Under the pieces are notes generated by a model. That model saw nothing but the letters and a program-made list of their open reading frames with translations, had not been told where the DNA came from and searched no databases. A stretch of 64,000 nt of DNA, from positions 6,352,543 to 6,416,542 of the forward strand of contig NC_049994.1 in the NCBI RefSeq assembly GCF_000003815.2, written 5' to 3'. The position numbers and the translations under genes are program-made. The first letter of the stretch is position 1; each line of letters opens with the position of its first letter. Shown here piece after piece: positions 1 through 52,872 of the stretch. This stretch comes from Branchiostoma floridae. Lineage: Eukaryota; Chordata; Leptocardii; Amphioxiformes; Branchiostomatidae.

Positions 1-516
1 AGCTACATCACGCCTTTGGGCCAATGGTTGTAGTGTGGCGAATAAGTCGCTGCCAACAATGTTCCTTAACCGTTTTTGTACTCTATTGAGGCAGGTCAGG
101 GAGTTCTGGGAGGCTCCAGCCCAAATGTGACAACAATATTCCATTTGGGGCCTTATCTGACTTTTATAAAGATAAAGAATAGCAGAGGGGGTAAGATATT
201 TTCTGGTTCGGTACAAAGAGCCCACCATTTTCCCAGCTTCCTTCGCAACGGATTGGATGTAACAATTCCACTTAAGATCAGGTGTAAATTTTAGGCCCAA
301 GAGTCGCTCAAAGCATTGGGCTTCTTTAAGTAGAGTCCCACTCATTTGGACCGGTGGCAGGTTCGGATCGGATCTCTTATGATGGAACGAAAGAAGGTTT
401 GTTTTTGAAGGGTTGAAGGTCACAAGCCACGTTTTGCCCCATTGAACTGTATGATCAAGGTCAGCAGAGAGATTAGCTGCAAGGGAGCGGTCATTACATC
501 TCTTGGATGTGTGGCC
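1..516 (-). mobile_element. LINE reverse-transcriptase 3' fragment
   Basis: The reverse complement of 1-516 is one uninterrupted reading frame without a start codon. It reads as the C-terminal part of a non-LTR retrotransposon reverse transcriptase: an FNPSKTNLLSF block (about 375-420), a GLKFTPDLKWN block (about 265-300), then YLYKSQIRPQMEYCCHIW (about 121-176) and NRVQKRLRNIVGSDLF (about 35-85). The thumb-region pattern Y.S.IRP..EY...W..A is typical of CR1/Jockey-type LINEs. The element is cut by the window edge and its 5' part is missing. It lies in the intron that follows the last visible exon of ACE gene A, in the same orientation. The assignment rests on motif recognition; the exact clade is not determined. 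Confidence 0.8.
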
Positions 517-1006
517 AAATACTGACTGGCAATTAACTGGCATCTACTGTACTGCCAAAATATAGAGCTTTCTTGATGGCAACTGTTGTGAATCCCTTCC
601 TTTACACAATCTACAAGCCTTCAGAACTAGGTGTTTACGGGTGTCTACTAGCATGATAATTTCTAACATCCATTTCATTAGTTCACTGCCATGAAGAGGT
701 CAAATGGCCTTGCATTGAACAAACCCGTTAAAACATAACAACAACAGAACCGTAAATAACTTCATCAGGTTGGCAATTATTCAGAGACGAGGGGGAATAC
801 AAGCTGAGCCACGTTTTAGACGGCATTCTTTCTGCTGCAGCGCCACCTACATCGGCTATAAGTAGCAGCAAGAAGTAGTTTCCAGTCATTTTACCCTGAT
901 GATGGTGTCTGATAGACATAGAAACGTTGGAAGTACTCCTTAGTTGTGCCTAAAGAACCTTACTATATGACCAACAACAGAAGTAGATCTATGCTGTTGG
1001 GCCTAC
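517..1006. other. Intron of ACE gene A, no further exon seen
   Basis: This stretch lies downstream (in gene sense) of the exon ending at 1007. I looked for the next conserved ACE exon (the [20 protein letters not shown] block) on the minus strand and did not find it, so that exon must lie to the left of the window. No other feature is recognisable here. Confidence 0.6.
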
Positions 1007-4000
1007 CATTGTCGTCTTCCACTGTGTCCAAGAGGCCGATGCTCTGTAGGTGTCTCGTAGTGGACACGGACAGTGCCAGCAGGTCTCCCACTGCTTCATG
1101 GAAACCCGGGTTTGCTCCACCCCGGAACGGGACGGGGTGATGCTTGTACTGTAGGAAGTACTCGATGTGCCCCATCTCGTGGTGGATGGTGACCAGGTCG
1201 ATCATGTTGATGTTAGTGCACATCTTAATCCTGTATACAGACATAACGTTTGTTATCAATCAATCATTCGCAGGCATCATAGTCTTATGCATAGCTTAAT
1301 CCTGTATCCAGACATAGCATTTGTCATTACTTTCAGAGAATCATGATTTGAAGCAAATCTAGTAACATTCATGACTATTTAAATCACTATCACCATCGAG
1401 CTGATAGGTCAGTGAGAGGAAACATTTAACATATCAGGGAATGTTTAAGACACTTAATTTTGGAAAAGGTTCTGTTATAATAGTGTTGATTCAGAACATT
1501 TACTGCGACAATAGAGAAGGAACATGCAACATCGAGTGAATATGAACATCTGGATCATTTGGCTGTTTGTTGGGAAGGAGGTGGGTGCTACCTTTACCAT
1601 CTACACCATTGGTTCAATGAAGCGTTACTCATCAATTAAATCAAAGTAGATAGAAGGTAAACATTGTGCCTCAGATGCTATTAGCAACAAGGAGGTGTGC
1701 AAAAACAATTACAGTGATGGCTCTTCAAGTTCGACAGGTATATGATATAATGAAGCCATAGAATATGTCATTCTGTGGCTTCAACTCATACAGGTATAAG
1801 CTCAAAAAGATACTGTAAATGCAGAAATGTTCGCGGTGGATTAATGTTCACGGTTTTCACGGTGACCACTCCACCGTGAACTTAAAGCCACCGCGAACAT
1901 TTTTCCATGGCATTACCAGACTATCGTACGTGGTGCCAACGCGAACTTGAAACCACCACGAAAAGTCCTCTTTCCCGCTACCGCGAAATTAAATCCCCGC
2001 GAACTTAAATGCATTTTTCATACATGACCTACCTGACGTCATGAGCGTTGTAGAAGTCCCATGCAGACGCGTGACAGACCACGTTTCTGTCTGCGGGTTT
2101 GACAAACATGGAGTTGTTCCAGAAGTTCTGCGGCATTTCGATTTGACCCATGTCCTTAAAGAAGTCGTCTGATGTGCGGAACATCCGATCAACTGTCCAT
2201 CCCTGACATGGACATTAATGAGTATTAGAACTTCCAGATGCTATTGTTTACGTTAAACTTTGCACATAAGATATTGATGAAGAAAGAAAGCTATGAGTTA
2301 TGGATTGTTCTAGCATTCAAGTACATGCTACTGGCAAGTTCTATTATCAATTGCAATCTCATTTATTAGCTTCCCATAGTCATCGTATTAGCGTTGTGTA
2401 AATCGAGCTAAGTTTTAAACAGCACTCTGAAGGTAGCAAAGAGGCACTGTTGTCATGAATAAAGATTTACTGGTCTGATTCAAACATTCCATCTATAAGA
2501 TTAGATAGAATGAAACTGCTCACATCTGCTTTCATCTTTGGTGTCACATCAAGGCTGGTCTTGCCAGGGTAAGGCTCCACAAGGTCGTAGATGTTGATCC
2601 AAGATTGAGACCACATGTTACCTGTATTGTACAAACATTTAAAGTTTCTCATTACGGGGAAAAACAGTAGATCATCTGCCCCCTCCCCCTTGCGGAGTAG
2701 GGATAGGTAGGACTTCGGCAGCTCCCAACCCTCATTTCGGTTCAGCTTCACCCCGCGCCGCAAGGAGGCGGGGGGATGGGGCAGATGATCTACGCAAGCC
2801 TGGCCTAGTCTCGTATTCTCTCGCGAGATCGAGTCTAGGTCATTCTCCGTGATGATCAAGATGTGTTGTCGGACATCGAATATTTGGAGATATGTACCTT
2901 GCCTTTAAAGCAGTCACTGTTGGAAGAAGATTGTATACTGTATACATACGTGACTGACGAACCTCTTCAATGGATTTTTCTTAAATTGTCTTTTCAAAAG
3001 CAGTATACAAGGCTTGAAATACTGAATTTTTACATTGTGTTTTATGTATTTACCCAACACGTGTGCAGGGATAGGTCCTGTAGCACTGATCTTGTCCTCT
3101 CCGTATTGTTCCCTCAGCTTCTTCCTGACATAAGCGTGCAGGTTGTTGTACAGAGGCTTGAGCTGGTTGTACAGGTTCTCAAGCTGCTCCTGAAAGTCAG
3201 GTATGTCATACCAGGAGCGCCAGTACGCACCGGTGTCTGCCCAGTTCTGAGCTGCATGGATACACAGTTTCATGTGACATACGAAGCATATTTAAGTAGC
3301 ATATACGTAGTATATACAGTTACTGTAGCGTTACACAAGCATTAGACATCTAGAAACTTGCGAACACAACATATGTGTAAAACGTTTGTGGCTGCATAAC
3401 GCTAGTAGTTTTGAGATAGACAAATTCATTAACAGTTATAGACACTACTGCCATGTTTGGAGGCAATCACATTCTTTGCGCTTATTTGAAGACCACATGC
3501 CCTACAACTACATCTGTACCTAAGTACTAAATCAGTATCTTACCATCTTGACTGACAGCATCGTTACTGAGCTCCACGAAACGTGAGTATTTGTCCTTCA
3601 GCTGTCTTCCCACCGCGTCCCGCCAGCCTTCCCAGCAGAACCGCAGCCGGTCGTAGTCACGGCTGCTGGCCAGACAACTGTACAAATCTGTGCACAGAAA
3701 AAATGTTGATAGGTAAGGCGTTGAGCATTGAAGAGCGTTCATGTCAATCTTATTTATATCCCCTCTCACCTCCAATGGCACCGCTTATACGTATTTTCAT
3801 TGTATCAGGCTTTTCCCCTATGAGTTATCCTTGTTTTCGGTCTCCCCTTTCCCTTGGAATCTCTTCATTTGCTTTCCTTTATAAACTTTCCTCTCACTCT
3901 TTCTGTCTACCGTATCTCAGGATCAATCCGGTGTCAGGGCTGGTAATTATAACGCGTGGGAACAGTATGACATAAAAACACAAAACACACAAAATGTAAG

Positions 4001-5416
4001 AAATGATCATCACGAGCACAACGTGTGTGACGTTATATTTCTTCACTTACACTTATACTTTCAGTCGTTTCCGCAAGCAGCCCATCAAGGCCCCGTATTA
4101 AAATATGACCTTACCTGGGTTCAGCGCCATACAGTTTGACGGATCGTCATACTCGCACGCCTTCCCAGTGGAATAAATGTTGTCCATCTCAGACATTATA
4201 TTGTTGAGCTGGAAAGTATATTTTACAGTTTTGATTGGAGCAAAAAGGAGCAGTAATCATAAGTGCTTCCTTTAATGTAGTTTTCATGCGGATGAAATAT
4301 TATCATAAGACATTCCTATGTTCAACGGTTAGAAAACCAAGATGGCGACCAACACCATGACACGAACAACATCTGCTGGATTTGCATATTTCTGCATACA
4401 ATATGACATGTAGTATCTATTATTATTTACCTTTTCATAGAATCATTCGTGTGAAGAAGTATTCAAATTTACTACATTTGAAAAACAAGATGGCGACAGT
4501 CAGCTTGACACGAACGACATCTACCGGATTTGTATATATCTGCATGCAACACTGACCTCCTCCAGCTTCGCCTGGTCCTGCTGAGCTGCGGTTCCAAGGC
4601 TGCTGATGCTATGGAAGAGTCTCTTAAGCGTTGCATTGTTGAAGTTCTGCCAGTCGAACTTGGAGGCATTTTGAGCCACTTCTTTGCCGAACTGGGCAAC
4701 CGCTAAGCTGGCTGCAACCTGGTAATAGTTTTGACAGAACAATGTTGCACGACTATCACTTTGGTCCATAGCAGCCATGGTCGTGTGTACCCAATGTGTC
4801 CTAACAAAAGACGCATAGGTTTAAATCGAATACACTCACAAACCATCTATTACGCCCAGGAGTGCTTTTCAACATCTACTATAGTGCACAGACAAGGCAT
4901 GATTGAAAATGTCGGTAAGAATTCTATCCTACTTGTACTAAGTGAACTTTTCTGCTGTTGCTCTGAATTTTCTACAGATGCGTGGGAATTACAATTTTTC
5001 ATTGTTAGATCTTTCAAGCATCAAACTAGTTTATGGTTATTGTTGTTGTTGTTGTTGTCTTTGTATGTGTTGTCTCTCTTGTCGTAGCAGTGGAAGAGGC
5101 AGTGGTCATCGGTATAATGAAAAAAAACAATACTCAGGTAAGACCTACCCACATACTAAATGTCAGTACAATCCATTCAGATTTATGCTGGTCTTCTACA
5201 CAAAATAACAAAAACACATACACACAAACGCTACCCAAAATGTAACCTTCTTTGCGAAGGTAAATATTAGGTTGAGACATAACAGCCTTACCTGCTTCTG
5301 GGCATTCTCCTGTGTGAGGTTCGTGTTAAAGTTCCAATAGGCCACTACAGTGTCGTAATAGACCTTCTCAGCTTTGGCGTTGTAGTCCCAAATGAAGTCC
5401 CATGCCTCTTGCTCCT
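1007..5416 (-). CDS. ACE gene A, second catalytic domain (partial)
   Basis: Zinc peptidyl-dipeptidase domain of the angiotensin-converting enzyme (M2) family. Exons on the minus strand, in order: 5292-5416, 4557-4718, 4115-4208, 3544-3687, 3054-3251, 2524-2621, 2033-2202, 1007-1230. All have GT donors and AG acceptors, and their phases agree. The first exon has no signal peptide. It joins the LDLa exon (5833-5955) in frame: a lone A completes AAG with the following AG. So this is the second domain of gene A, not a separate gene. The last exon carries HHEMGH and, 28 residues after the first zinc histidine, the glutamate ligand in GFHEAVGD. The exon before it has CHASAWDFY, which forms part of the substrate pocket in this family. 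The remaining exons (substrate-binding KFH and YIRYF, C-terminus) are beyond the left edge. Confidence 0.9.
1811..2017. mobile_element. MITE, family 1 copy 1
   Basis: Starts TACTGTAAATGCA and ends with a decayed AAATGCATTT. The interior is rich in GCGGTGG / CCACCGCGAA inverted segments. Related copies are at 29724-29936, 43725-43876 and 52515-52755. This copy ends about 10 bases before the splice donor of the exon at 2033-2202. Confidence 0.75.
2666..2860. mobile_element. Foldback (inverted-repeat) element
   Basis: Imperfect inverted arms: GTAGATCATCTGCCCC near 2668 pairs with GGGGCAGATGATCTAC near 2778-2794, followed by a CTCGCGAGA-rich segment. It lies in an intron of ACE gene A. A relative sits at about 40540-40760 in gene C; both share TTGCGGAGTAGGG and GGCAGCTC. 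Confidence 0.6.
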
Positions 5417-5832
5417 CTGCGGAAACACGGCACACTGTAACTGTGGGAAGGCTGTGAGATCTTACTTCGTATATACTGGACCAGTATTATAGCATGATGC
5501 TTTGATATTTGTTTTCCTGAAGACAATTTCGCAGAAAATGTACTCTGTATTGTCATATGGGTTCTCACAATTGCAAACGTGCCTATGATAGTTTTAATTC
5601 TTAGATGAGGAATGGCAATGCGATATGTAGATATTGTAGGTAAAGCAAATGGCCTTCAACCGTGGAAAGCACCCGAAAATCACGATCAGGACTATCTACA
5701 TTTTGTTGATGACATAGTTTTAAGTAGGTACTGTTAATATCTTTTGTTGCCTTCATAAATATACCTCCGGGGTCACTGAATGAATGCATAGATTATCAAA
5801 CTAACGAGCAAAGGAACGAACGAGCTTCTTAC

Positions 5833-8800
5833 TATTGGGACAATCTCGTTCATCGGAGTTGTCAGTGCAGTCGTTAACTCCGTCACAGCGGTCCCCTGGC
5901 CGGATGCACTTGGACCCGTCAGCACAGGTGAAGCCGTCGGTCGCCTCACAGTCATCTGGGAAAGGAAACACGAAAATTCTTTCAAATTAAGCTGACCAGA
6001 AATCTCCTACATTTTTTTACTTCAAACTGTTGCAAGAAATGAAACCAAGGTTAACGCTACACAATAGGCGGACAAGGCAGCTAGTGCCTGGCCATTCTGT
6101 TATTCATAATAAATGAAGAGGTCATAATTTAGGAGAAAATATCCATGTTTTGTACCAACAGCATTCGCCTATCCTGCTGAACTTGCTAGTGAACGTTGAC
6201 TATGGACAGGAAGTGTGATTTACATACGAAAAGAAATGTTATTTGTAAGCAGTACATGCATTTCCTTTATAGAGAGGTTTCTGTAACCGACGAAACTCCC
6301 ATTTCAAGAGACGAAGTGTATTCGCTTACTATCTGAGATGAACAATGGAAATCTAACCCTGTACTGATGTGTAGCCAGATTTGAATTTTGAATTTGTACT
6401 CACAAGGAGGAGCCCAGCTTTCATCCCAGCCGAGTGTCTCTCCCTGGTTCTGTTGCTCCAACCATGTGATGAGTGGCTGGAAGTAGTCCACGAGCGGCAG
6501 AGCAGACATCACCCTCTGTCCACCGGTGATCGCCTCCATGGCTTCTGGCCACTCCTGACTGGATCCCATCCGGAGCATTCGGCTGTTTTTTTTTAGACAG
6601 GGGGGGGGGGGGGAGCGTGCGTTACATTTATCATATATACCATCGGTTCAATGAAGTGTTACTCAATCAAATTAAAGTAAATAGCTATATAGGAGGTAAA
6701 CGTTGTGCCTCATGTGCTCTAAGACTTAGGTCAAGCAGATTTCGGGAGCGAAAAGAATTATATAAATGGCATCAAAATACACAAAATGGCAAAATAAGAT
6801 TCATGAGAATGATCTGTGTATACTTTTAGGTAAACAGTTTAATTTTTCGTTTCTTAAAACATCCTGACCGGGCCCCGCTTTGGAAATGTGACCTAAGGCG
6901 TAGGCATCGGTGCCCGTCATGGCAGTAGCCCCGGCCGGACTCCAAAGCCATAAATGTGCCCCGGTGGACTGCCGGATACCGGTTATTTGTTACCACGTGC
7001 CAGGCCGATTTTAACGCCGACTTACATTCAACAACCTGGTTCCTGACCGGTCTCAAGGTGTCTCACGCGGTCACGCCCGAAAGTGTAAAAAACAACCCGT
7101 GAACTGTCCGACAGGGTCCCTCTTTCCAATTGGGACCTAAGCCTAAGCGAGGAGGGGTGCAAAAAAGAGAATTACAGTTATGTATCTATGCAGACCTTCA
7201 GGTTAGACAGGAATATGCATATAACAACTCACGCCAATTTTTCCCCAGCGGCAGCCTTGTTGGGTCCTGCAGAGATGTCACACTTGTGCAGCGGACCGGT
7301 GTGTCCGGAAGTATCACACAGGGCCTTGTGGAACTGGAACTGAAGGATGAAGCTCACGAAGTACCTGTAAGCAAAAATGCATATGAGCTTGTGCTTTATT
7401 AGTTTGCCGACTCCTCCCAACTATATTGTATGATCTGAATGCTCTCTCTCTCTCTCTGTCTTAATCTATTTGTACATAGATACATTTTAGATAGATACTT
7501 TTAGATGAAAAGATTACCTAATAGAGCAGACATGTTGTTTTTATAAGGATTCTTCCTCGGGCCATATGTATTATCTAATATATCATTATCATATGTACAC
7601 CTCTTGTCTCTTTGAAAGCGACAAGTAACCACAAAAGCAGGAAGGAAGGTATTTCAAAGAGCGAATGTTATTCAAGAATCATTCTTAGTTAAAACGTTCA
7701 CACAAGAACATGATACACTTTGACAAAAAGCAGACCTGATGTAAGGGACGTTGGCAGGGATGTGGAATTTGCATCCGGGGTCAAAATCTTTGGCGTGGTT
7801 CCTCGGGACAGGTGGCACGATACCCTGGTAACGAGTCCTGGATGGAAAAAATAAATTAGTGTGCAGCAAAGAGATATTGTTGGAACTTGAATGATATTTG
7901 ATGGTCCTTGGACTGAGTGATAAAAAACACCAGCAAAGACGGAAATTGTTGTAGTTTTTTCTGTGTAGTTCTGACCTGAGTTTCCACTACTGTGTGGTTC
8001 TGACCTGAGTTTCCACTACTCCCGATTGTGCATGAATACGTTTTGTAATGATTTTATTAGACTGTGTTCCTGGTTGTACGTGTACGTGAGTTAGAAATTT
8101 GTCCTAATTGTTACAGTTAGACTGTGTGATTCTGAATCTGACCTCGAGTTTCCACCACTCCTGGTTGTACGTGAGTTAGGTTTGTCCCAGTTCTGTTAGA
8201 CTGTGTGATTCTGACAGGAGTTTCCCCCGTTTTTGGTTGCACATGTACATGGGTTAGAAGTTTGTCCTAGTTTTTTGTGACTGTGTGACTGTGTGATTCT
8301 GACCTGAGTTTCCACCACTCCTGGTTGTACGTGAGTCAGGTTTGTCCTAGTTCTGTTAGACTATGTGATTCTGACCTGAGTTTCCACCACTCCTGATTGT
8401 AGGTTTCCGGGGTGATGGATCCGTTGAAAACTCCCCATCTCCACTGGTCCATCAGATATCCGAACGGTAGGAAGGAAACCTTGTCCAGGGCCATACTCAT
8501 CAGAAAGTTGATGTCAGACTCTGGATGAAGAGAATTAGACATAGTTGGTGACTTTTGCAAAGCTATGCTGTTTATCTCGTATAGAGTCCCTTGCCAAATA
8601 GCAAACAGGAAAATCCTCTGTCTTAAAGCTTACCGTTGTCGTCTTCCACAGTGTCCAAGAGGCCGATGCTCTGTAGGTGTCTCGGAGTGGACACGGACAG
8701 AGCCAGCAGATCTCCCACTGCTTCATGGAAACCGGGGTTTGCTCCACCCCGGAACGGGACGGGGTGATGCTTGTACTGTAGGAAGTACTCGATGTGACCC

Positions 8801-11800
8801 ATCTCGTGGTGGATGGTGACCAGGTCGATCATGTTGATGTTAGTACACATCTTAATCCTGTGTCCAGACATTTATCATTACTTTCAACGAAACATGATTT
8901 GAAGCAAATCTAGCAACATTCATGGATATGAAAATTATCAGGGGATGTTTAAGATACTTAATTTTGGAAAGGTTCTGTTATAATGATGTTGATTCAGAGC
9001 CTTCACTGCAATAGATACGAAGATGCAACATCAATTTAATATTCTGTGGCTTCAACTCATACAGGTATAGCAGGGCTCGAAAAATTTTTACCTGCACCGC
9101 TCTGAATTTAGGAAGTGTGGATCATACTAAAATTGTTCAGGAACCATTCCTTTTTTATACTTTATAGGTGGTAACAGTCAATGTAGCTAATAGCAATCCA
9201 CATACACCTAGATGATATGCCATTTTACTATAAAACCCAGTACATGGACCAGTGCAGGTTAGCTGCAGGTAGACACCAGAAATACATACACAGCTCCAAT
9301 TTTACCTGTACTAATCTGCATATGCAGGTTTTATTTTGAGCCCTGTATAAGCTCAAAAATATATGTCGTCATACATGACCTACCTGACGTCATGAGCGTT
9401 GTAGAAGTCCCATGCAGACGCGTGACAGACCACGTTTCTGTCTGCTGGTTTGACAAACATGGAGTTGTCCCAGAAGTTCTGCGGCATCTCAACTTGACCC
9501 ATGTCCTTGAAAAAGTCGTCTGATGTGCGGAACATCCGATCAACTGTCCATCCCTGACATGGACATTAATTACTGTTAGAACTGTATACTAGTGTTTCAC
9601 TTTGTAGATAACTGAGATATTCATAAAGAAAGATTACTTAAGGTATGCCGTATGGCCTGTTGTGGTAATGAAGCAAATGGAACAAACGCGTCTGCTTTTG
9701 AATTGCAAACCCATTTTACCACTTCGTACGTAATGACTATCAATACTGAACATAGTCATAGTCATAGGCATTGTGTAAACCATAACATAGATGTTGATCA
9801 TCTATCTTCAAATATAAATGAAAGGGAGCTTCTTACATCTGCCTTCATCTTTGGTGTCACGTCAAGACTGGTCTTATTGGGGTAAGGCTCCACAAGGTCG
9901 TAAATGTTGATAAAGGATTGAGACCACATGTTACCTGTATTGAACAAACAAATAGACAAACGAACAAGTCAAGCTGTCACCACAGACAAAAACAAACAGA
10001 AGATAAACAAACACAAAAGCTTCAAGCTTAAATATATATCCAGGCAGAGTATGTTTTAGTGATATGATTAAAAGCAGAATGCAAATGATTAGTGGCGAGG
10101 AGCCCACTAATCATTAAAAACGTGAGACTTTTCATCAGCCATTGCCTCCAAAGAAGAAGTCAAACCTCCCAGTAAAGAATGTAGAATAATGCATAAGGTA
10201 GCTGTATAGAACAGACACTTGTTACTTTTTGCTGTCTGCACCCTTGCAATTAGCCTACGATATGGGCATGGATTTGCAAATAGATAAACAATTATAATTA
10301 CCCAACACATGTGCAGGGATGGGTCCAGTGGCACTGATCTTGTCCTCTCCGTATTGTTCCCTCAGCTTCTTCCTGACATAAGCGTGCAGGTTGTTGTACA
10401 GAGGCTTGAGCTGGTTGTACAGGTTCTCAAGCTGCTCCTGAAAGTCAGGTATGTCATACCAGGAGCGCCAGTAGGCACCGGTGTCTGCCCAGTTCTGAGC
10501 TGCATGGATACATTGAGTTGCATGTGACATGAATGGCAGCGTTAAACATTTCTAAAGTTCAAGACACAAAGTGCACTGTCTCAATGCGTATTTGATGCTG
10601 CAGATTAGATTCGAGACAGATCAAATGCAGAACAGTTATTATGGCAATCTTTTAGCTTCTAATCTGAGAGACTTGAGCGCAGTTTTCATTAAAGGCGTAT
10701 TGGAAGACTTTTCTCATCTACAAGTCATCAATCTTTCTTCAATCTTTATTCATTAAATCAACAATACAGAGTTNNNNNNNNNNNNNNNNNNNNNNNNNNN
10801 NNNNNNNNNNNNNNNNNNNNNNNNNNNNNNNNNNNNNNNNNNNNNNNNNNNNNNNNNNNNNNNNNNNNNNNNNCAGTGTGGAGTAAACTATTACAACAAC
10901 TAGACAGAGTAGACACGACATAAACAGTACAAAGACAAAAAAACACTTAAGCATCAGTCAATGATTTGTTATATAGTCTGATAGTATGGTGTAGGAAGGA
11001 GTTGCGCAGTCTGGAGGTCCTTGCTTTTGGGATAGAGATGCAACCTGAACTTCGTAGTGACCTCCCAGTGACTTCTGACCTGCCTATAAGTGCTGCCTAT
11101 CACACGTAAGATACCTGTAAAGATGCTAGTCAATTATCATCTTACCATCTTGACTGACAGCATCGTTAGTGAGTTCCACGAAGCGTGAGTATTTGTCCTT
11201 CAGCTTCCTGCCCACCGCGTCCCGCCAGCCTTCCCAGCAGAACCGCAGCCGGTCGTAGTCACGGCTGCTGGCCAGGCAACTGTACAAATCTAAAAAAGTT
11301 GAGTAATGAGTTGACTATCAAGTAGCCTTCATGTCAGTTTTCATTTCTCTATCACATTATTTCACTAATAGATACAATCTTAACTTCTCTTACTAGTAAA
11401 ATCATGTGATAGAGGGGTGCTATCACATTATTTTACTAATAGACCAATCTGTCTTTTACTAGTAAAATAATGGGATAGAGGAATGCTATCACATACTTTC
11501 ACTAATAGACACCTTCTTAATACCTCTTATTAGTGAAATAATGGGATTGATTGATCTTATAGGGTAGTCCCTTCAGTCTAGATGACTGATTTCCAAGGGA
11601 GCCCTGACACATGTTCGCACATGTTTACACGGCGGGGTTATATCGCCCCTTACGGGGTGACATACCCTTTCGCTGGTAAATCACCGTGTGGCTGATACGG
11701 TATGGAGGATCGCCAGGCCTCGATCCGGGTGATTTGAAGTGAATCACCAACTCCAGACAGATGGGCTTGTTCCATCTCACACCGCACCATCGCACGTGTG

Positions 11801-14800
11801 AGGGTTCTTTAATGTGCATGGGGTGTGACTCTCCCCATACACGGGACCTCCATTTAACGTCCTATCAGAGGGACGGCCCTAGCCGAAGCTAGGTATTCAT
11901 TTTCACCTGAGTATAGTGAGGAAATCCGTGTAAAGTGCCTTTCCCAAGGGCACAAGATCGGTGACACGCAGTGGAATTCGAACCCGCCACCTCTCGGTCA
12001 CGAGGCACAAATCCTGCCGCTGCGCCAGACGATCTCACGTCATAGAGGGGTGCTATCACATTATTTCACTAATACAGCTAACTTAACTTCTCTTTTAGTA
12101 GAATAATGGGATAAGGGTGCTATCACATTATTTTACTAATAGATACAATCTATTCTTGCTTCTTGCTTAGACCAGCATTTCTTTCTCTTGCTAGTAAAAT
12201 AATGTGATAGAGGGGTGCTATCACATTCTTTCACTAATAGACACAATCTTTTTTTCTCCTACTAGTAAAATGATGTGATAGAGGGGTGCTATCACATTCC
12301 TTCACTAATAGACCAGCCTTTCTTTCTCTTACGAGTAAACTAATGCGATAAAGGGGGGTTATCACATTCTTTCATTAATAGACACAACCTTTTTTATATG
12401 AGTACGAAGATAGCTACTGGTGAAATAATGTGATATCATTATGTCAACAATTATCACGTGTAAAAGTAGTTAACACGGTTTTTGACAGAAACACTTTTTT
12501 GAACTAAAATAATGTGATAAATATACAGTGCTTTTTTTCATATTCATAGTCCTTAGTTTTTGTCTTGCTTTCTCCACACTGATACAGAAATAAGCTCTCT
12601 CTTTTTTCCTAACCTGGGTTCAACGCCAGACAGTTTGACGGGTCGTCATACTCGCACGCCTTCCCAGTGGAATAAATGTTGTCCATCTCAGAGAGTATGT
12701 TGTTGAGCTGAAAAACATACTTTCCAGATTAATTCTATTGAAAGAAGGAGTTTTAGTACCTTTAGTGCAATTTAATACTATTTACCTTTAATCTTTTGCG
12801 TCATGAAGTATTTTCATTTACTGCATTTGAAAAAACAAGATGGCGACTGTCAGCTTGACACGAGCGACATCTGTCGGATCTGCATATATTTGCATACAAT
12901 ACTGACCTCCTCCAGCTTGGGCTGGTCCTGCTGAACTGCGGTTCAAAGCTACTGATGCTATGGAAAAATCTCTTAAGTGTTGCGTTNNNNNNNNNNNNNN
13001 NNNNNNNNNNNNNNNNNNNNNNNNNNNNNNNNNNNNNNNNNNNNNNNNNNNNNNNNNNNNNNNNNNNNNNNNNNNNNNNNNNNNNNNNNNNNNNNNNNNN
13101 NNNNNNNNTTTACCATCACACTGACCTCTAAAATCCAAGGTCACCACAGGGCCTTTTGAATTCCAAAACACTACCTCAAAGTTACCTTTTCGTTTATTTG
13201 ACATATTTCATATGTGACTTTTATGTGACGTCATGATAAGATGTACAAAGCCGTCGCCGCCATGTTGGTGGTTTGCATGGATCCAAGACGGCGATCAGTC
13301 ATTCAAGGTAGCAGAACACAGTTTTCGGCCTGTGGGGATTTCTATAGTTAAGGGCCACAAGGTGACTGGCTTCGACGCGGAAAAAACTATAGTAGGATGC
13401 ACTCGGTTTAGGAATTACCAAAAACGGATATGTTCGAGTTCAGGGTACAAGCCACAAAATATTGAAAAAAAATAAAATCCTGTAGGCTCATCGCCTTCTC
13501 ACGCCCACTTTGAAACGACGCTCTGCGGAGGTCAAATAACTGCAGCCCGCTCACACTAGAAGGGCAGTTGCGTAATGTGGCGCATTTATACACGAAATAG
13601 AAAACTTTCACAATCCAAACCATACAGTCTCAGAGCCGACACCTTCCGTGACCACGTAGCACAGATTATATCTGGCTGCCCCTCAAATAAGGCTTTTTAC
13701 CTCTCCCTCAACAAGTTTATCCGTACTACTTTATGTACCCGCGTCATGGACCCGGGGGTCGCGCATAAATACTGTGTTCTGCTACCTCAAAACACACTAA
13801 AAGCATGATTTACAAAAATACTCTCTAGACATACGGAGACATGCTGATTTAGAGGAAAACCAAGTGGAACATTTCACACATTTTTACTTTACATTGTTGG
13901 AGAGCATCACTAACCCTTTCATGTTGCGATCGCTAATACGTGAGTTATCCGCCCGTAACCTCGGCTAATAATTAAGGGTTTATGACCCGCCCCGAGGTGT
14001 ATATGGTGTCATAACGCCTTGTCCTTTGCTATAACCACAGAATTTCATTCTGACCAATCAGAAGGAGCGATACACACCGAACTGAGCGGAATCTATGTGT
14101 TATTGCGTCATAACCAACATGGAACATGGCCTTCTGATTGATCCACGGCGCATGGCTATATGATAACACCGGTTATCACTTCAGTAATCTCCAACTCATC
14201 TGGAAGCTCGAGGCCTGACAGACAACATCCATCAATTGTTTTACCTCAATTCACCTGACCTCACCTCATAGGACCTAACCTGTGCAACTATTCTCGCTAG
14301 TTAAGTCGTCGCCAGCGGCTTTTGACATTTTTATTCAAACAATAAGGCAGAAGCAGTTTTCACGCACCACACATTAATTACAGTTTCATGAAACCTGTCT
14401 TGTAATCGTCCCGGTCCATGGGCATCGCCAACTTGTCTTATCTAAGGATGGCTGCTTTCTTTTTATATAGCCAAAACATTTTATGGCTTGTATGGAAGAT
14501 ATCTATAGCTTCGAGATTCGGGAAAAATTCTCTAGATATACACAAAGATCAAAGATAGAAGTGAATCAACTCTTTAAACTTTTCTTACTTTCTGACATTA
14601 CATAGTCACGTAGATGCACTAATACTACAGAGGAATATTATCACCTGTTCCTGACTGCGATTATTAATACCTGTGTTATTCGTGAGTAATGCCAACCTGA
14701 CAACATAGGTTATGACTTCAGCAATTTTGACTCAACTTTTGCGTGCCTGCGAAGCTGGTGTGTTACGCCGAAGGGTGGTTATACCGGCTTTATAGATACA

Positions 14801-16436
14801 GATACAGATTAACAAGGTCGAAGGCGGACAGTCAACATACCAATATTTAATATCTCTATTGAGGTGACTTTACCTCATCTGACCTATTGTTTACAATTGT
14901 CCCCGGTCAAAGACTTGTTACTGATGGCTCTTGACATGTTCATTAAACCGATAAAGGTAGAAGCCATTCTCACGCACATACAGGTCATTAATCTGATACA
15001 TTTATGTCCACCTGCGTTGTCAGTAGTGAAGAATGTACTGTACGTGTCGCTACATGTGCAACTAACACACACAGCTCCGGCACTGTCAAGAGTTTTGGTT
15101 AGGCCACAGCAAGTAAATTTTATTGAGAACATTAGCGCGCTCATTAATTTTTCGCCTGATTTCAGAAAAAAATCCTCTTCGGGGATGGTCAGATAGACAA
15201 AGATAGGCAAACATGTTGTGTTGTAGCCTAATAATCATACCTGTAGAAGTGACACTAGGGAGGTAGCCATAACAGTAGGTGCAGAAGTGCAATTTGTTGG
15301 ATAGTTGTAAAAGTGCCACCAAAATGGAAGCCATGAATGTAGTTGCCAGTTTGGCAGGTTATACCAGTGTACCACACTAGTATCACTTTTACTACACTAG
15401 TTTACTTCTTTGATACATGAATGAATGCCTTGATAGTTGTGATGCCACGTTTTGTCACTTCAAATCTTGTTACGACGTTTATGGTGTCTATTTTGAAGAT
15501 TTAGCCATCTTGTTTTTTTTACCATCTTGCTTTTATTCGTGCTCTTTCTTTTGCACTCTGCATAGGATATCATGCATAAAATTTACTTGTTGTGGCCTAC
15601 TTAGAGTTTCATAAAACCTGTTTTTTAATCGTTCCCACCCATGGGCACAACCAAATCGCATTATCTACAGATGGCTGTTTTTTTGCTTGTTTGGGAAAAA
15701 TTCCAACACGGTACTATCTAGATATGCGCGAATATCGAAGATATGTTTAGAGAGAGGTGAATGAAATCTTTAAACTTTTCTTACTTTCTGACATTACACA
15801 GTTACGTAGATGTACTAACACTCCTGAGTAAAATCATCACCTGTTCCTAGATGCAATACGCGAGTTATTAGTAAGTAATTCTAACCTGACAACATAGGTA
15901 ATCACTTCAGCAATTTTTGACTAAACTCTTTAACAAGGTCGAAGCCGGACAGTCAACATATATACCGACACGTATCTTATCTTATCTCTATTAAGGTGAC
16001 TTCACCTCATCTGACCTATTGTATACAATTGTCTCCGGTAGAAGACGTGTTACTGATGGCTCTTGACATGTTCATTTAACCGATAAAGGTAGAAGCCATT
16101 CTCGTGCACATGCCATTAATCTGATACATTTATGTCCGCCTGCATTGTCAGTAGAGCAGGGTGACCCATGAACTGTATGTGTCGCTACATGTGTAACTAA
16201 AGGTGGACTCTCCCTGCACTTGGGGCACCGGTGCGGCACTGCGGGGTTCGTAGATGATTTCAGAGATACAGCACGAATTTTCTTCCGTTTTGTGTATTTT
16301 GTTGTCTTCTAAGTCATACTTTTACGTATTACGCAATATCTAAATGATGTAAATCGGAGATAATAACAAAACAGTGCCGCAGTGAACGAACCCCGCAATG
16401 CCGCACCTGTGCACCAAGTGCAGGGAGAGTCCACCT

Positions 16437-16511
<75 letters not shown>

Positions 16512-16875
16512 CACACACACATACACACAGCTACGGCACTGTACGAGTTTTGGCTAATTGCTAATTTGAAAAGTTAATTGAAACATGTTCGGACCGAGAT
16601 TCTCATGTTTTGGAGTTGATTTTTCGACAGGGCTTGGAAAAAGTGTATATTTGTAAATAAATGAAAATATGAAGTCACTTCTTAAATGATTTTGATAACG
16701 TCTGATGCGTCTTTTACACTCTCGTGCCGTGCATTCCCGTCGTCATAGTAACGGAAGCTACTTCAAACGACTTGCACGACAAATACAGACTTAAGATGTT
16801 TTTCTCAGATAGAATATGACTAAAAACCAACCTCAAAACCTTAGTGGGAGAGAGGGGCGAGAGACAGAGAGAAAG

Positions 16876-16916
<41 letters not shown>

Positions 16917-19900
16917 CAAAGAGAGAGTTAGAGAGAGAAGAACGTTTATAAGGCGATGACAACATCTGTAGAGTATAACGTCCTTGGGTAGAGCAAGACC
17001 TTTTTGGGTAGAGGTTATGTGAGGACGGAAAGAAGGTAAATTAATGTACGTTGTTAAAATGTTACGCTCAATTAAAATTCTAAAGCCAAAGACGCACATA
17101 CGCAATCATCGTCTTGTTAAATTTCGGAGCACGTTGTAAGAAACATAAATCACTGTCTTAAAGAAAGGAATCTTGACACAAACTGGGCGTTGCCAATTTG
17201 CACGAAATAGTAGGGGTTCTGTTTCGCACATATGAGCTACTGAACGATATACATATGACTTGCAGGTTGTTTTTCTGAAACTTTCTCACAGTAGTATAGA
17301 ATACACGACTTTAGAAGCTCAATGCTGACAGAATAGACATGACAACAGTGCTGCACAAAAGATCACAAAACAAAGCGACAACAGGGTAAAGGTACAAGTT
17401 GAGGTGTCCAAATTTTATGCTGTGTTAAGCTAAGGGCACAACCCGCCGTACGTGCAAATACGTGCTGTCAACGTGTCAAAACGTGGGCAATCTTTTGGGA
17501 TCCGTAAGTGCTAAGTACCACCTCCGTATACGAACTCGTAGGGAATCCGACGGATTTTAGAGCACGCAGGCACGCCGTAGAACTTGACGTGCAGGCAAAA
17601 CTTTGTGTTGCTGTGTTGACGTACTCCCTCCCTGCTCTTGCCAGTCCCCACGTTTTCAAAAATACGCGGCGGACGTGGCCTCCCCAAAAAACGTACGGAC
17701 AAATTGCACGTACGGCGGGCACCGGCTGTGCCCTTAGCTTCAGGGCCTCGCGTTTATCTCAGGTTGCGATTATCAATACGTGATCTATCAGCGTGTAACC
17801 CCAGCCTAACAATGTGGGTCATCACTTCAGCTATCTTCAACTCAACTTATCTGGAAGTTCGTGTTGGGATAGCTAACATTCAGTCATTTGTTTACCCCAT
17901 TTCACCTGACCCTCCTCGAGCTCACAGGACACCTGGCTCTCCGATAGTTGACTCGATATTGATGGCTCTTGACATGTTCATCAAGCCGATAAAGGTAGCG
18001 CACATGTCATTAACCTGATACATTTTCTTCCACCTGCGTTGTCAATAGAGCAGGGTGACCCATGAAATGTATAAGTTTGGAATAATGGTTAAGTTTAAAG
18101 GTTGTTTTTTTTTTATTACCAGCGAAACTATGTCTGGACTGAGATTTTCATGTTTTGGGGTTATATTTGCAGTTAGGCTTAGAAAAAGTATTTATTTGTA
18201 AATATGAAGCCACTTCTTCAAAGATTTTGATACAAAGCCCGATACATCTTTTATACACTCGTGCCGTACGTTCCTAGCCTCTACCAGGCTCCGCGGATCG
18301 GTGGTCTAATTGTATAAATTAGACAAATAGAGTCTATAGTACGCTAGGGGAGTTAGCCGCCAGAAGTCAGAAGCCTTCTGGCGACTATAGACTCTATTTG
18401 TCCAATTTCTACAATTAGACCACCGATCCGCGGAGCCTGGTAGATGCCAGTGCGTTCCCGTCGTCATAGTAATGGAAGGTGCTTTAAACGATTTGCACGA
18501 CAAATACAGAGTTAAGATGTGTTTATCAGATAGAATACAAATAAAACCCAACCTCATAAAGTTAGGGAGAGACATAGAAAGAGAGAGAGGAAGAGAGAGA
18601 GAGCCATAGAGAGAGAAAGAAATAGGGAGAGAGAGGGGGGCAGAGAGAAAGAGAGAGAAGAAAAGAACGTTCATAAGGTGATAACATTTGTAGAGTGTCA
18701 AGGTATGCGTTCGGTATGACGTCCTTGGGTAGAGCAAGACCTGTTTGGGTAGAGGTTATCTGAGGACGGAAAGAAGGTATTTAAATGTACGTTGTTAAAA
18801 TGTTACGCTCAATTAAAATTTCAAACCAAAGAAGCACATATGCAATCGTTAAATTTTGGAGCACGTTACAAGGAACATAAATCACTGTCTTAAAGAAGGG
18901 AATCTTGACACAAACTGGGCGTTGCCAATGTGCACGAAATAGTAGGGGTTCTGTTTCGCACATATGAGCAACTGAACGATATACATATCCTCCGGCATCT
19001 AATGACTTGCAGGATGTTTTTCTCACAGTGGTATAGAATACACGACTAAGCTCAATGCTGACAGAATAGACATAGACAAAAGTGCTGCAAAAACGATCAC
19101 AAAACAAAGCGACAACAGGGTAGAGGTACATGTTGAGGTGTCCAAATTTTACGCTGTATTAGCGCCTCACGTTCATCTGTGGTTCAAAACCTACAGTCCC
19201 ATGGTCGCAGTTGCTGTGGCAGTTGCTGTCGTATTGAGGTCACCTGAGTGGCGCCGAATGGCAGCTCGATCCACACCCTTGCGATTTAGGCCCGCCATTC
19301 GCAATTCGGCCCCTGGCTGCTAAGGGAAAGTACCCCCCCCCACACACACACACAAATAATGACATAATGCCAATGCGAATCGATTTCTCATTTCCTACTT
19401 CACTGCCCATTACTTAATAATCCTCGTCACACTCTCTTCGGCAAACTTTCCAGGATCGTAGGACATCTTTTCGATATTTTCTCTCTTTCTGATGGTGAAA
19501 TCAAACATTTACTACTTTTTCGTACTTCCCTTTGCAACTATTCCACAAACTGTTTGATTATGTCTTCAACCCAGAACTACATTGTGCAAACTGGCCGTTT
19601 CTAACCATGTTTTTTTGTTCCGTATCCTACCAAAATTTCCGGGGGTGGGGGGTACCAGGACTTGCGCTTCTACCAGTCAATACATTTAATTTAGTATTCC
19701 ATTTGTACAGACTTACTGCATCTTGTCAATCATATGTTATTCTTATTTTCCTTTAATAGCGGCACCGATATAAGTTGTCTTAACTTGAGTGGGCCGCTAC
19801 TTGTCTGTTATTTTGCCTTTATGTGTTTGTTCAATAAAAAAAAAAATAATAATAACATCCCAGGTTGCGATTATCAACACCTGAGCTATTCGCGCGTAAC

Positions 19901-20796
19901 CCCAGTCTGACAACGTAGGTCATCACTTCAGCTATCTTCAACTCAACTGGACAGCCGGCATTCAGTCATTTGTTACCTCATTTCACCTGACCCTCCTCGT
20001 AGGACTTACCTGTACAACTGTCCCCGATAGTACGACAGGTATCTCACTAAAGCTGCGGCACGTTGGCTACCTCACTAAGACTGACGGAAATCACCGATGA
20101 AAAGGAATCTTTTCTGGCTTTGTGTATTTTCTTGTCTTTTTAGGCCTCCTTTCCACGAGACTGCGATCGCGCTGTGCTCTCAATGTGACATAAATAGGAT
20201 GTGCGTAACGTTCGCTTTCACACTGGGCATATCATACAAAACGTAAAAGTGTGACTGAGAAGACAACAAAACACACACGAGTTTGCTCAGTACAAGGCCA
20301 TTGACAACTTTTGGGCACCGAAATACGCTAATTTTCGCTAATTTCAAAGTTGGTTAAAGTTCTCTAATAAAGAAAGGGAGTTTGCCTAGAAAGGTAGTTT
20401 GCCGTGGAAGGGAGTTTCGAGGTTTTTAGCGGCGTTATAGAAACTGAACCAACTTTGAAACTAGCGAACCGCCCCCATACATTTAAAGCCAGTTCCGCTT
20501 GAAATCTGGGAAGCTAGGTAGTTGGCGAGCTTGTCAGAATTAAAAATTAGTCAACTTAGATGTTGTACGCACTGAAAAGACTATGTCCCTACCTGTTTCT
20601 GGCTATTCTCCTGTGTGAGGTCCGTGTTGTAGTTCCACGCGGCCACAACACTGTCATAGTAAACCTTCTCAGCTTTAGCGTTGTAGTCCCAAATGAAGTC
20701 CCAGGCCTGCTGCTCGTCTGTGATGCCCTGAGGAGCGACATTCTGAGCTGACAACAACACGAACAGTAGAGAGAGAACCTCCGCCCTCCCTGCCAT
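5833..20796 (-). CDS. ACE gene A, signal peptide, first catalytic domain and LDLa module
   Basis: Secreted or surface zinc peptidyl-dipeptidase (ACE, M2 family). Exons: 20593-20796 (ATG at 20796, signal peptide residues 1 to about 23), 12907 to at least 12986 (cut by a gap), 12614-12707, 11146-11289, 10302-10499, 9837-9934, 9384-9553, 8634-8857 (HHEMGH and GFHEAVGD zinc site), 8376-8520, 7736-7837 (KFHIP...PYI, substrate binding), 7233-7364 (RYFVSF), 6404-6582, 5833-5955. The last exon is an LDLa module with six cysteines and the calcium-binding pattern DCTDNSDE. It splices in frame into a second ACE domain (5292-5416 onward), giving a two-domain enzyme. Exon 12 has one codon more than in genes B and C (ITGGQR against ITGQR). 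Exon 2 has a one-base deletion that would break the frame unless it is a sequence error. Exon 6 differs at WINI to FINI and PGK to PNK. Confidence 0.88.
7965..8402. repeat. Tandem repeat containing copies of the exon 9 splice donor
   Basis: The unit is TGTGTGATTCTGACCTGAG, then TTTCCACCACTCCTGGTTGT and a GTGAGTTAGG-like tail. Copies start near 7973, 8000, 8138, 8211 (degenerate) and 8299. The unit at 8371-8400 is the real 3' end of exon 9 of ACE gene A (NQEWWKLR codons plus donor). The array is therefore a local duplication of an exon-intron junction. Confidence 0.85.
10774..10873. other. Assembly gap, 100 N
   Basis: A run of exactly 100 N, the conventional size for a gap of unknown length. 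It lies in the intron between exons 5 and 4 of ACE gene A. Confidence 0.95.
11330..12530. repeat. Tandem array of palindromic ~70-bp units
   Basis: Each unit reads CTAGTAAAATAATGTGATAG, a short AGGGGTG loop, then CTATCACATTATTTTACTAA, so each can form a hairpin with arms of about 20 bp. About eight units are visible (near 11400, 11460, 12045, 12110, 12210, 12280, 12350 and a degraded one near 12430). The array is split by a SINE-like insertion at about 11580-12036. It lies in the intron between exons 4 and 3 of ACE gene A. Confidence 0.8.
11580..12036 (-). mobile_element. tRNA-derived SINE
   Basis: Read on the minus strand from 12036, it begins with a tRNA-like head: an A-box-like TGGCGCAGCGG (about 12016-12026) and a B-box GGTTCGAATTCC (11973-11984). 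It continues into a body with a GTTAAATGGAGGTCCCGTG block (about 11845-11865) and a TTAAAGAACCCTCACACGTG block (about 11793-11812). A truncated relative on the plus strand is at 29455-29640. The superfamily is not assigned. Confidence 0.7.
12907..12986 (-). pseudogene. Frameshifted exon 2 of ACE gene A (visible part)
   Basis: Compared with the equivalent exon in domain 2 (4557-4718) and in genes B and C, this exon lacks one base around 12946. The plus strand reads GCGGTTCAAAGC where the others read GCGGTTCCAAGGC. The [17 protein letters not shown] reading is lost and continues out of frame to the donor. The 5' half of the exon falls in the adjacent gap. This is either a real disabling mutation in gene A or a consensus error beside a low-quality gap. 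Confidence 0.7.
12987..13108. other. Assembly gap, 122 N
   Basis: Run of N that removes the 5' part of exon 2 of ACE gene A. About 82 coding bases are missing there, which fits the gap size. Confidence 0.95.
16199..16438. mobile_element. MITE, AAGGTGGACTCTCC family, copy 1
   Basis: Near-perfect terminal inverted repeats of about 50 bp: AAGGTGGACTCTCCCTGCAC at the left, its complement at 16419-16437 at the right. The interior includes TTACGTATTACGCAATATC. A decayed copy is at 51713-51936. Confidence 0.85.
16439..16528. repeat. (AC)n microsatellite
   Basis: About 90 bases of AC dinucleotide repeat with one AA interruption, starting at the right terminus of the MITE at 16199-16438. Confidence 0.95.
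16860..16935. repeat. (GA)n microsatellite
   Basis: Purine-rich GAGA tract. A homologous, more interrupted tract is at 18560-18660 in the duplicated segment. Confidence 0.9.
17427..17740. mobile_element. MITE, AAGCTAAGGGCACA family, copy 1
   Basis: Inverted termini AAGCTAAGGGCACAACCCGC and, at the right, the complement ending TGCCCTTAGCTT at 17740. The interior contains ACGTACGG-type short palindromes. A second copy of similar length is at 58965-59274. Confidence 0.85.
18281..18443. mobile_element. Foldback MITE with ~65-bp arms
   Basis: The left arm starts CTACCAGGCTCCGCGGATCG and the right arm is its complement ending at 18443. The arms continue through GGTGGTCTAATTGTA and AATAGAGTCTATAG. 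The homologous segment near 16725-16740 lacks the element, so this copy inserted after the local duplication. CGTTCC occurs on both sides (target duplication candidate). Confidence 0.85.
18560..18662. repeat. (GA)-rich microsatellite
   Basis: Interrupted GAGA tract homologous to the one at 16860-16935. Confidence 0.85.
20333..20470. mobile_element. MITE, GCTAGTTTCAAAGTTGG family, copy 1
   Basis: Left end CGCTAATTTCAAAGTTGGTT, right end CCAACTTTGAAACTAGCG. The interior AAAGGGAGTTTGCCTAGAAA is shared with the copy at 44664-44820. Confidence 0.75.
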
Positions 20797-23517: not shown

Positions 23518-23600
23518 CTAATTCAGCATTGCAATCAGGATGCAGACGACAGAAGAGATGAAGGTGGTCGCCATGGAAACGGTGACACTCTGTGCCGATG
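23518..23600 (-). CDS. Terminal exon of ACE gene B, GPI-signal-like tail
   Basis: The acceptor CCACAG precedes 23600. The exon completes GCA (Ala) with the last G of the LDLa exon, then encodes 26 residues: small or polar SAQSVTVS followed by a hydrophobic run ending [10 protein letters not shown], then TAG. There is no basic cytoplasmic tail. Small residues, a short spacer and a terminal hydrophobic segment are the pattern of a GPI-attachment signal. A very short transmembrane anchor is the alternative. The same exon is present in gene C at 34012-34094. Confidence 0.75.
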
Positions 23601-34011: not shown

Positions 34012-34094
34012 CTAATTCAGCATTGCAATCAGGATGCAGACGACAGAAGAGATGAAGGTGGTCGCCATGGAAACAGTGACACTCTGTGCCGATG
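34012..34094 (-). CDS. Terminal exon of ACE gene C, GPI-signal-like tail
   Basis: 83 coding bases after a CCACAG acceptor, nearly identical to the gene B terminal exon. It encodes [13 protein letters not shown]-type polar then hydrophobic residues and ends in TAG. It is joined in phase 1 to the LDLa exon. Confidence 0.75.
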
Positions 34095-51346: not shown

Positions 51347-51712
51347 GGCCGCTGGCAGCCACGTTGTAAAGGCACTGGAAAAACTGGCTAGGCGGGACTC
51401 GAAGGATACACTCTGCGCATGTCATGACGTCATAGATCCGCAAGGGCAAAGTCGTTAGGTTAAAGGTCAAAGTAATAGAAAACTTATTTGAAATTGAACT
51501 ATTAATCATAATTTGTATACGTACATTCTAGTTTTATCTATTTCAAGAGACTGCAAAATCACAGAAATACATTATAAAACATGCTTCGGAAATACAGGTA
51601 TGACAAAGGATGTTTCTGCTAGTTGTAAGCTACACGTGATTCTCCATGTATGGCCTATGTTATACTGTCGCGATCTCTAGGATTTAAAATCACTTCCATC
51701 GCTATAGGCCTA

Positions 51713-52755: not shown

Positions 52756-52872
52756 TTTCAAAATGTCTTGCCTAAAGGCTTTCTCCTAGTTTGCCCGGTT
52801 TTGCAGGCTTCTATTTTTAACCTTGAGAAGCGTTATATAACATACTTTTAACTGTTAGGTTGAAACGTAAAC

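What the first reader, a model, noticed from the sequence alone, without database searches (positions are those of the whole stretch)
1007..20796. Two-domain ACE built with an LDLa linker
The LDLa exon of gene A (5833-5955) ends in phase 1 and joins in frame to a second ACE domain that has lost its signal peptide exon. Somatic ACE of vertebrates also has two M2 domains, but without an LDLa module between them. Here a two-domain form sits beside two single-domain paralogues, so fusion of adjacent tandem copies is the simple explanation: the terminal exon of one copy and the signal-peptide part of the next were lost. This may be an independent origin of a tandem-domain ACE.
Basis: partly seen in the sequence, partly recalled or inferred. 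Interest (0 to 1): 0.72.

Follow-up and report, generated by a model that had tools for sequence, protein, structure and literature searches.

The report
Two ACE genes fused in tandem
In what looks like a lancelet genome, a deletion appears to have joined two neighbouring copies of an ACE-type enzyme gene into one gene for a double enzyme, and each copy kept the small LDL-receptor-like module that its relatives also carry.

Summary
Gene A reads, exon by exon, signal peptide–M2–LDLa–M2–LDLa–LDLa–hydrophobic GPI-like tail (1,364 aa with one exon masked). Its last seven coding exons lie left of the window. The LDLa is not a special linker but the C-terminal module of this ACE clade: neighbours B and C read signal peptide–M2–LDLa–tail, and LDLa follows M2 in 6 of 7 clade members and 0 of 5 paralogues outside. 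The DNA before the second domain matches the intron leading into the paralogues' tail exon, then switches to the inside of exon 1 within about 25 bases (5441-5417). One deletion of roughly 2.5-2.9 kb explains the fusion. The likelier acceptor makes the exon 5292-5440, not 5416. A1 and A2 group with B and C; grouping with human N and C domains is rejected. An independent two-domain ACE in Branchiostoma floridae was proposed in 2012 (PMC3354321); my eight literature searches listed nothing on LDLa in ACE. Against it: no RNA evidence, and A1 exon 2 is frameshifted beside an assembly gap.

The parts
20593..20796 (-). A1 exon 1: start codon, signal peptide, start of M2 domain 1
   Evidence: hydrophobic N terminus
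12907..12986 (-). A1 exon 2, visible part only; one base short of A2, B, C (frame broken); rest hidden by N run 12987-13108
12614..12707 (-). A1 exon 3
11146..11289 (-). A1 exon 4
10302..10499 (-). A1 exon 5
9837..9934 (-). A1 exon 6
9384..9553 (-). A1 exon 7
8634..8857 (-). A1 exon 8 with HEMGH zinc motif and third zinc ligand
8376..8520 (-). A1 exon 9
7736..7837 (-). A1 exon 10
7233..7364 (-). A1 exon 11
6404..6582 (-). A1 exon 12, end of M2 domain 1, ends in phase 1
5833..5955 (-). LDLa exon of unit A1, now between the two M2 domains; phase 1 to phase 1
5417..5441 (-). Interval that holds the fusion breakpoint: tail-exon intron homology on one side, exon-1 homology on the other
5292..5440 (-). 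A2 exon 1 (fused exon): no signal peptide, no in-frame ATG upstream; preferred acceptor gives start 5440, alternative 5416
4557..4718 (-). A2 exon 2
4115..4208 (-). A2 exon 3
3544..3687 (-). A2 exon 4
3054..3251 (-). A2 exon 5
2524..2621 (-). A2 exon 6
2033..2202 (-). A2 exon 7
1007..1230 (-). A2 exon 8 with HEMGH motif; exons 9-12, two LDLa exons and tail exon follow outside the window (C16:6349007 down to 6344567)
23518..31645 (-). Gene B: signal peptide-M2-LDLa (24295-24417)-tail exon (23518-23600); exon 9 partly hidden by N run 26195-26441
34012..47248 (-). Gene C: complete signal peptide-M2-LDLa (34691-34813)-tail exon (34012-34094)

Best explanation
Gene A is a fusion of two neighbouring copies in a tandem cluster of ACE-type (M2) peptidase genes whose normal unit is signal peptide-M2-LDLa-short hydrophobic tail (probably a GPI-anchor signal). 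One deletion ran from the end of the last intron, or the first bases of the tail exon, of the upstream copy into the middle of exon 1 of the next copy. It removed the stop codon and anchor signal of the first unit, the spacer between the genes, and the signal peptide of the second. The LDLa exon ends in phase 1, and both the lost tail exon and the new fused exon start in phase 1, so the reading frame survives. Inferred: the product enters the secretory pathway once, folds as two zinc peptidyl-dipeptidase domains spaced by a calcium-folded LDLa module, and is held at the cell surface by the A2 tail after two more LDLa modules. Shown here: anatomy, frame, homology and junction. Not shown: transcript, protein, activity, anchoring.
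For: Readable splice borders are AG/GT with matching phases; the joined reading is open for 1,364 aa when A1 exon 2 is masked. Pfam finds two M2 and three LDLa stretches. B and C show the parental unit with a tail exon. DNA before the fused exon matches the tail-exon regions: scores 71 (A2), 70 (C), 55 (B), ranks 1-3 of 51 acceptor regions, next best 49; 0 of 1000 dinucleotide shuffles reach the value for A2, B or C, 18 of 1000 for C6a. From 5419 on it matches exon 1 of five other copies at about 75-86%. Tree and AU tests. Zinc ligands, the main catalytic positions and chloride ligands are kept in both domains. dN/dS A1-A2 over exons 3-11 is 0.10; A2 exon 1, which has no start of its own, has 0.11 (bootstrap 0.02-0.35).
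Against: No transcript or protein evidence. A1 exon 2 is frameshifted and carries further private changes beside an N run. The 24-nt tail-exon part of the match is by itself no better than exon 7 or exon 4 starts (19-21 against 21), so a breakpoint inside the tail exon is not proven. In an earlier test the whole A1-A2 intron beat all 200 shuffles against C (67 against 36) and B (52 against 42) but not against A2's tail intron (44 against 47). A poly(A)-like ATTAAA lies in the interval at 5598, so transcripts ending after 5833 are possible. The LDLa exon is less constrained: A1-A2 4 synonymous and 6 nonsynonymous changes.
Confidence: 0.75

Rival explanations
1. The two-domain reading is genomic only: A1 is a decaying copy (frameshift in exon 2) and A2 is expressed alone or not at all, so no two-site enzyme is made.
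For: A1 exon 2, visible part: one-base deletion plus further private changes against A2, B and C; the first domain is not intact in this assembly.
Against: The damage lies directly beside an N run, where assembly errors are common (general knowledge). The other A1 exons have intact splice borders and frame, and dN/dS to A2 is 0.10. A2 exon 1 lacks a start yet shows dN/dS 0.11, although part of those changes may predate the fusion.
Confidence: 0.15
2. Separate transcripts: A1 ends after its LDLa exon by intron retention (secreted M2-LDLa), and A2 starts from its own promoter and first exon, as in the germinal ACE of mammals.
For: An ATTAAA at 5598 and short open ATG frames lie in the interval; the internal promoter of mammalian ACE is described in PMC1325048 (passages). 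Mixed use with the fused transcript is possible.
Against: None of the ATG frames between 5832 and 5417 listed looks like a signal peptide (my reading); no tail exon is found there. A first exon further upstream was not searched for.
Confidence: 0.07
3. Assembly artefact: the tail exon of A1 and exon 1 of A2 were lost by collapse of repeats in the assembly.
For: The window has four N runs within its first 27 kb (10774-10873, 12987-13108, 22496-22595, 26195-26441).
Against: No N lies between 5955 and 5292. Exon 1 of A2 has dS 0.74 to A1 and B and 1.0 to C, so it is not stitched from those copies. A two-domain B. floridae sequence was reported in 2012 (PMC3354321); whether it is this locus I could not check.
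Confidence: 0.03

Closest known systems
Branchiostoma floridae two-domain ACE (Fournier et al. 2012, PMC3354321; section 5 and passages read)
   Same: Two strongly similar M2 domains in one protein; independent domain duplication proposed there. It may be this very gene.
   Different: The parts I read mention no LDLa modules, tail, neighbouring units or junction; I could not link their accession to this locus.
Vertebrate somatic ACE
   Same: Signal peptide, two M2 domains in tandem, membrane anchor; zinc, main catalytic and chloride positions shared.
   Different: A1 and A2 are not the N and C domains; LDLa module between and behind the domains; GPI-like tail instead of a transmembrane helix with cytoplasmic part.
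Anopheles AnoACE9 (PMC1325048; passages read)
   Same: Independent two-domain ACE with hydrophobic C terminus and GPI-anchor prediction.
   Different: 1,225 aa with no LDLa mentioned in the passages I saw; different lineage.
B, C, C6a and C1 paralogues in the same genome
   Same: Same exon pattern and LDLa exon after M2; same tail exon in B, C and C6a, one tail candidate in C1.
   Different: One catalytic domain each; the parental type of the fusion.

Membership tests
Peptidase family M2 (ACE), PF01401 | Match to the family profile over the full domain | tested here: met
   Two stretches in the fused model, 1671.7 bits, cut-off 23 (A1 exon 2 masked)
Peptidase family M2 (ACE), PF01401 | HExxH zinc motif plus third ligand and key substrate residues | tested here: met
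   Both domains: H383, E384, H387, E411, Q281, K511, Y520, H353, A354, H513, Y523 positions as in the human C domain; subsite positions 162, 282, 376, 380, 403 differ (residue numbers recalled)
Two-domain (somatic-type) ACE | Two M2 domains in one reading frame | tested here: inconclusive
   Open with A1 exon 2 masked; exon 2 itself is partly hidden and frameshifted; no RNA
Two-domain (somatic-type) ACE | Both sites active, shown by assay | not testable with these tools
   Residues only
Orthologue of vertebrate somatic ACE | First domain groups with vertebrate N, second with vertebrate C | tested here: not met
   AU test p 1.22e-54 and 8.71e-69; human N and C are sisters (one vertebrate species)
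LDL-receptor class A module, PF00057 | Six cysteines with calcium-site acidic residues, profile match | tested here: met
   36.1 bits, cut-off 24.1; six cysteines and DxxxDC..DNSDE seen directly
GPI-anchored protein | C-terminal hydrophobic stretch ending the protein, preceded by small residues, no cytoplasmic part | tested here: inconclusive
   Tails of A2, B, C and C6a end in about 15-18 mostly hydrophobic residues at the stop; no GPI predictor was available

The most novel reading that the evidence does not exclude
Lancelets evolved their own double-headed ACE in which calcium-folded LDLa modules serve as the spacer between the two active sites and as the stalk above a GPI-type anchor. It was built by one deletion that exploited the phase-1 borders shared by the LDLa and tail exons. 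The other copies of the cluster keep the same borders, so read-through splicing or later deletions could yield further multi-domain ACEs.
Probability: 0.45. Interest if true: 0.58.

Novelty: new variant of a known kind. Interest (0 to 1): 0.42.

Why it matters
Two-domain ACEs have been argued to arise repeatedly (vertebrates, Ciona and Anopheles in PMC1325048; Ciona and B. floridae in PMC3354321), which suggests that a double active site is useful in itself. Here parental-type single-domain units still lie next to the fusion and the breakpoint can be placed within about 25 bases, so how a tandem-domain enzyme is made can be read directly. The LDLa modules give a linker unlike that of human ACE, which makes domain cooperativity testable with a differently built molecule.

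Tried and rejected
LDLa as an insertion made for the linker: rejected, because B, C, C6a and C1 carry the same exon after their single M2 domain. C6b, whose 3' part is rearranged, and the partial copy on contig C200 show no LDLa in the stretches fetched.

Truncated second domain: rejected; the window edge cuts it and the remaining exons are present to the left.

Acceptor at 5416: kept as an alternative only. Five in-phase AG sites keep the frame open into A2: exon starts 5464 (-4.8), 5440 (7.2), 5434 (-1.2), 5416 (-1.9) and 5407 (-15.1); the 51 leave-one-out scores run from -4.8 to 16.4, and 2 of them are below -1.9.

Proof that the junction lies inside the tail exon: I first read (alignments to A2, B and C all ending at tail-exon base 26, with GTTTCC in the same codon phase) as proof. 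The control shows that the 24-nt exon part alone is not distinguishable, so I claim only that the breakpoint lies between 5441 and 5417.

Simple sister relation and recent age of A1 and A2: proteins give A1+A2 at 93/93, not starred, but introns are a patchwork. Ten of 11 introns were compared; intron 2 A1-B 0.89, intron 6 A2-B 0.80 and 0.79, intron 7 3' part A1-A2 0.89, intron 8 A1-B 0.70 and 0.67, intron 10 B-C 0.73 and 0.75, intron 12 B-C 0.85 and 0.79; most other values are at the level of unalignable DNA. By dS over exons 3-11, A1 is slightly closer to B (0.161) than to A2 (0.190). Exon 1 of A2 has dS 0.74 (Fisher p about 0.0015, with the synonymous-site number for exons 3-11 typed in as about 265). 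Gene conversion is my reading; no date is given.

A second copy of the junction in the genome, and a species check with a lancelet fluorescent protein: not done, because the genome search did not answer after.

Structure prediction was not tried: the product is spliced and partly outside the window, and the tool asks for proteins that the DNA gives letter for letter.

Literature: eight searches. No listed title or abstract start concerned LDLa joined to an M2 peptidase; (both Pfam names) found 0 papers. I opened three papers. The library lacks most subscription journals.
Full report
What was checked. The window is G000:C16:6352543-6416542 of a 513-Mb genome in 431 contigs. From size and recall I take it to be an amphioxus (Branchiostoma); no record names it. 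A whole-genome search with PF01401 gave 82 exon-level matches on contigs C1, C2, C6, C16 and C200; the tool calls such counts lower bounds. I fetched the DNA around every listed group of matches and mapped exons with tblastn.

Gene A. On the minus strand A1 has 12 M2 exons from 20796 to 6404, then the LDLa exon 5833-5955. A2 has eight M2 exons inside the window (down to 1007). Its exons 9-12, two LDLa exons and a tail exon lie left of the window (C16:6349007 down to 6344567). The splice borders that can be read are AG/GT with matching phases; two borders are hidden by N (A1 exon 2 acceptor, B exon 9 donor). With A1 exon 2 masked, the joined reading is open for 1,364 aa and holds two M2 and three LDLa stretches.

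The LDLa is old in this clade. B and C, the two neighbours, are single-domain genes: signal peptide, 12 M2 exons, LDLa exon, and a tail exon reading [31 protein letters not shown]. Tblastn and a cysteine-pattern scan found LDLa after M2 in A1, A2 (twice), B, C, C6a and C1. It was not found for C6b, whose 3' part is rearranged, nor for the five more distant paralogues C16b, C16c, C16d, the plus-strand C16 gene and C2, within the flanks fetched. That is 6 of 7 clade members and 0 of 5 outside. The C6a and C1 modules pass the Pfam cut-off. The LDLa between the two domains is the inherited C-terminal module of the first unit.

The junction. A2, B and C show what should follow A1's LDLa exon: an intron, then an 83-nt tail exon. 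In A1 there is instead a 392-nt interval up to the exon that starts at 5440. The DNA at 5515-5421 aligns to the end of that intron and the start of the tail exon in A2, B and C; none of 1000 dinucleotide shuffles reached the score (71, 55 and 70; best shuffles 63, 54 and 54), while for C6a 18 of 1000 did. Among 51 acceptor regions of the four units the three tail-exon regions are the best matches (71, 70, 55; next 49; median 32). Taken alone, the intron part ranks 1, 2 and 4, and the exon part is not distinguishable from exon 7 or 4 starts. In a cruder test of the whole interval, C and B beat all 200 shuffles and A2 did not. From 5419 onward the sequence is exon 1 of an M2 unit, starting after the signal peptide. 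The breakpoint therefore lies between 5441 and 5417. In intact neighbours the equivalent stretch (rest of tail exon, spacer, start of exon 1) is about 2.85 kb (B to A1) and 2.5 kb (C to B), worked out by hand from the coordinates, so one deletion of that size suffices. The LDLa exon ends in phase 1, and both the tail exon and the fused exon begin in phase 1, so the frame is kept.

Which acceptor. The matrix was built from the 51 acceptors of these same four units. With 5440 the linker reads ...[22 protein letters not shown]. Either choice keeps the frame.

Origin. A tree of 14 M2 domains puts A1, A2, B and C together (100/97), then C6a and C6b (100/99), then C1 (100/99), apart from the human N and C domains, which are sisters (98/97). 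Holding A1 with human N, or A2 with human C, is rejected (p 1.2e-54 and 8.7e-69) (a simpler tree agrees). Human is the only vertebrate in the set. A1+A2 has 93/93, below the strict mark; A1+B is disfavoured on protein (p 0.019), yet by dS A1 is slightly closer to B (0.161) than to A2 (0.190), and introns give a patchwork of closest pairs. I read this as gene conversion within the cluster, so the 94-95% protein identity of A1 and A2 does not date the fusion. A2 exon 1, at the junction, has dS 0.74 against A1 and B while exons 3-11 have 0.19, which suggests an old fusion whose core exons were homogenised since. This is inference.

Is it used? Both domains keep the zinc ligands, the main catalytic positions and the chloride ligands; five subsite positions differ from the human C domain, and position 518 is V in A1 and T in A2. 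dN/dS of A1 against A2 is 0.10 over exons 3-11, but higher in the LDLa exon (4 synonymous, 6 nonsynonymous changes). A2 exon 1 has no in-frame ATG upstream and no signal-peptide-like exon in the interval, yet shows dN/dS 0.11 with bootstrap 0.02-0.35. That is hard to explain unless it is translated as part of a longer protein, although some of those changes may predate the fusion. Against this, the visible 80 bases of A1 exon 2 are one base short of A2, B and C and carry further private changes beside an N run. In this assembly the first domain is not intact. An assembly error at a gap edge, skipping of exon 2 (162 nt in A2, B and C, in frame) or real decay are all possible; I favour the first.

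Known work. Fournier et al. 2012 (PMC3354321; section 5 read in both parts, passages) state that one B. floridae and one Ciona sequence have strongly similar N and C domains, implying independent domain duplications. The 2005 Anopheles paper (PMC1325048; passages) reports the independent two-domain AnoACE9 with a hydrophobic C terminus and a GPI-anchor prediction, and Ciona as another case. PMC4967905 (passages) warns that a lancelet fusion with part of an M2 domain was a gene-prediction error; that case is a mitochondrial carrier, not this one. The eight literature searches listed nothing on LDLa modules in ACE.

How it most likely works (inference). The protein enters the secretory pathway by A1's signal peptide, folds as two ACE-type peptidyl dipeptidases separated by one calcium-binding LDLa module, and ends in two LDLa modules and a hydrophobic tail without a cytoplasmic part, probably exchanged for a GPI anchor. 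It would trim dipeptides from peptide hormones at the cell surface or, after shedding, in body fluids.

Verdict. The linker is less special than proposed and the independent origin is not new. Not found in print by my searches: the modular unit, the complete architecture with LDLa, and the junction at about 25-base resolution. The main caveat is A1 exon 2.

Noticed in passing
window 50300-51421 (-) and 52864-53919 (+): Two long open frames in opposite orientation encode NHL-repeat proteins (PF01436, 84 and 74 bits) whose C-terminal halves are almost identical, an inverted duplicate pair.
   Followed up: partly
window 7961-8401; L024 258-287 and 332-361: Tandem repeats in A1 intron 9 contain pieces resembling the 3' end and donor of exon 9; C6a has two extra copies of the same [10 protein letters not shown] end. 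Possible decoy donor sites.
   Followed up: no
L017 (C16:3906086, 3906430, 3906601): Three extra partial copies of exon 9 precede the full exon 9 of the C16c M2 gene.
   Followed up: no
L010 (C16:6338528-6339865): The plus-strand M2 gene next to gene A has two copies each of parts of exons 7 and 8; mutually exclusive exons or local duplication.
   Followed up: no
L026, L027 (C6:24648273-24654659) and L032 (C200:10248-12931): C6b has a second set of M2 exons 9-11, and contig C200 carries matching exons 9-12; this may be a partial duplicate or an unmerged haplotype.
   Followed up: no
window 1-543 (-): Open frame inside the 4.5-kb intron 8 of A2 that reads like a reverse-transcriptase fragment of a non-LTR element by eye; Pfam gave no match.
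   Followed up: partly
L011 (C16:6345998-6346120 and 6345146-6345262): A2 ends with two LDLa exons in series, both phase 1 to phase 1, a local exon duplication not seen in B, C, C6a or C1.
   Followed up: yes
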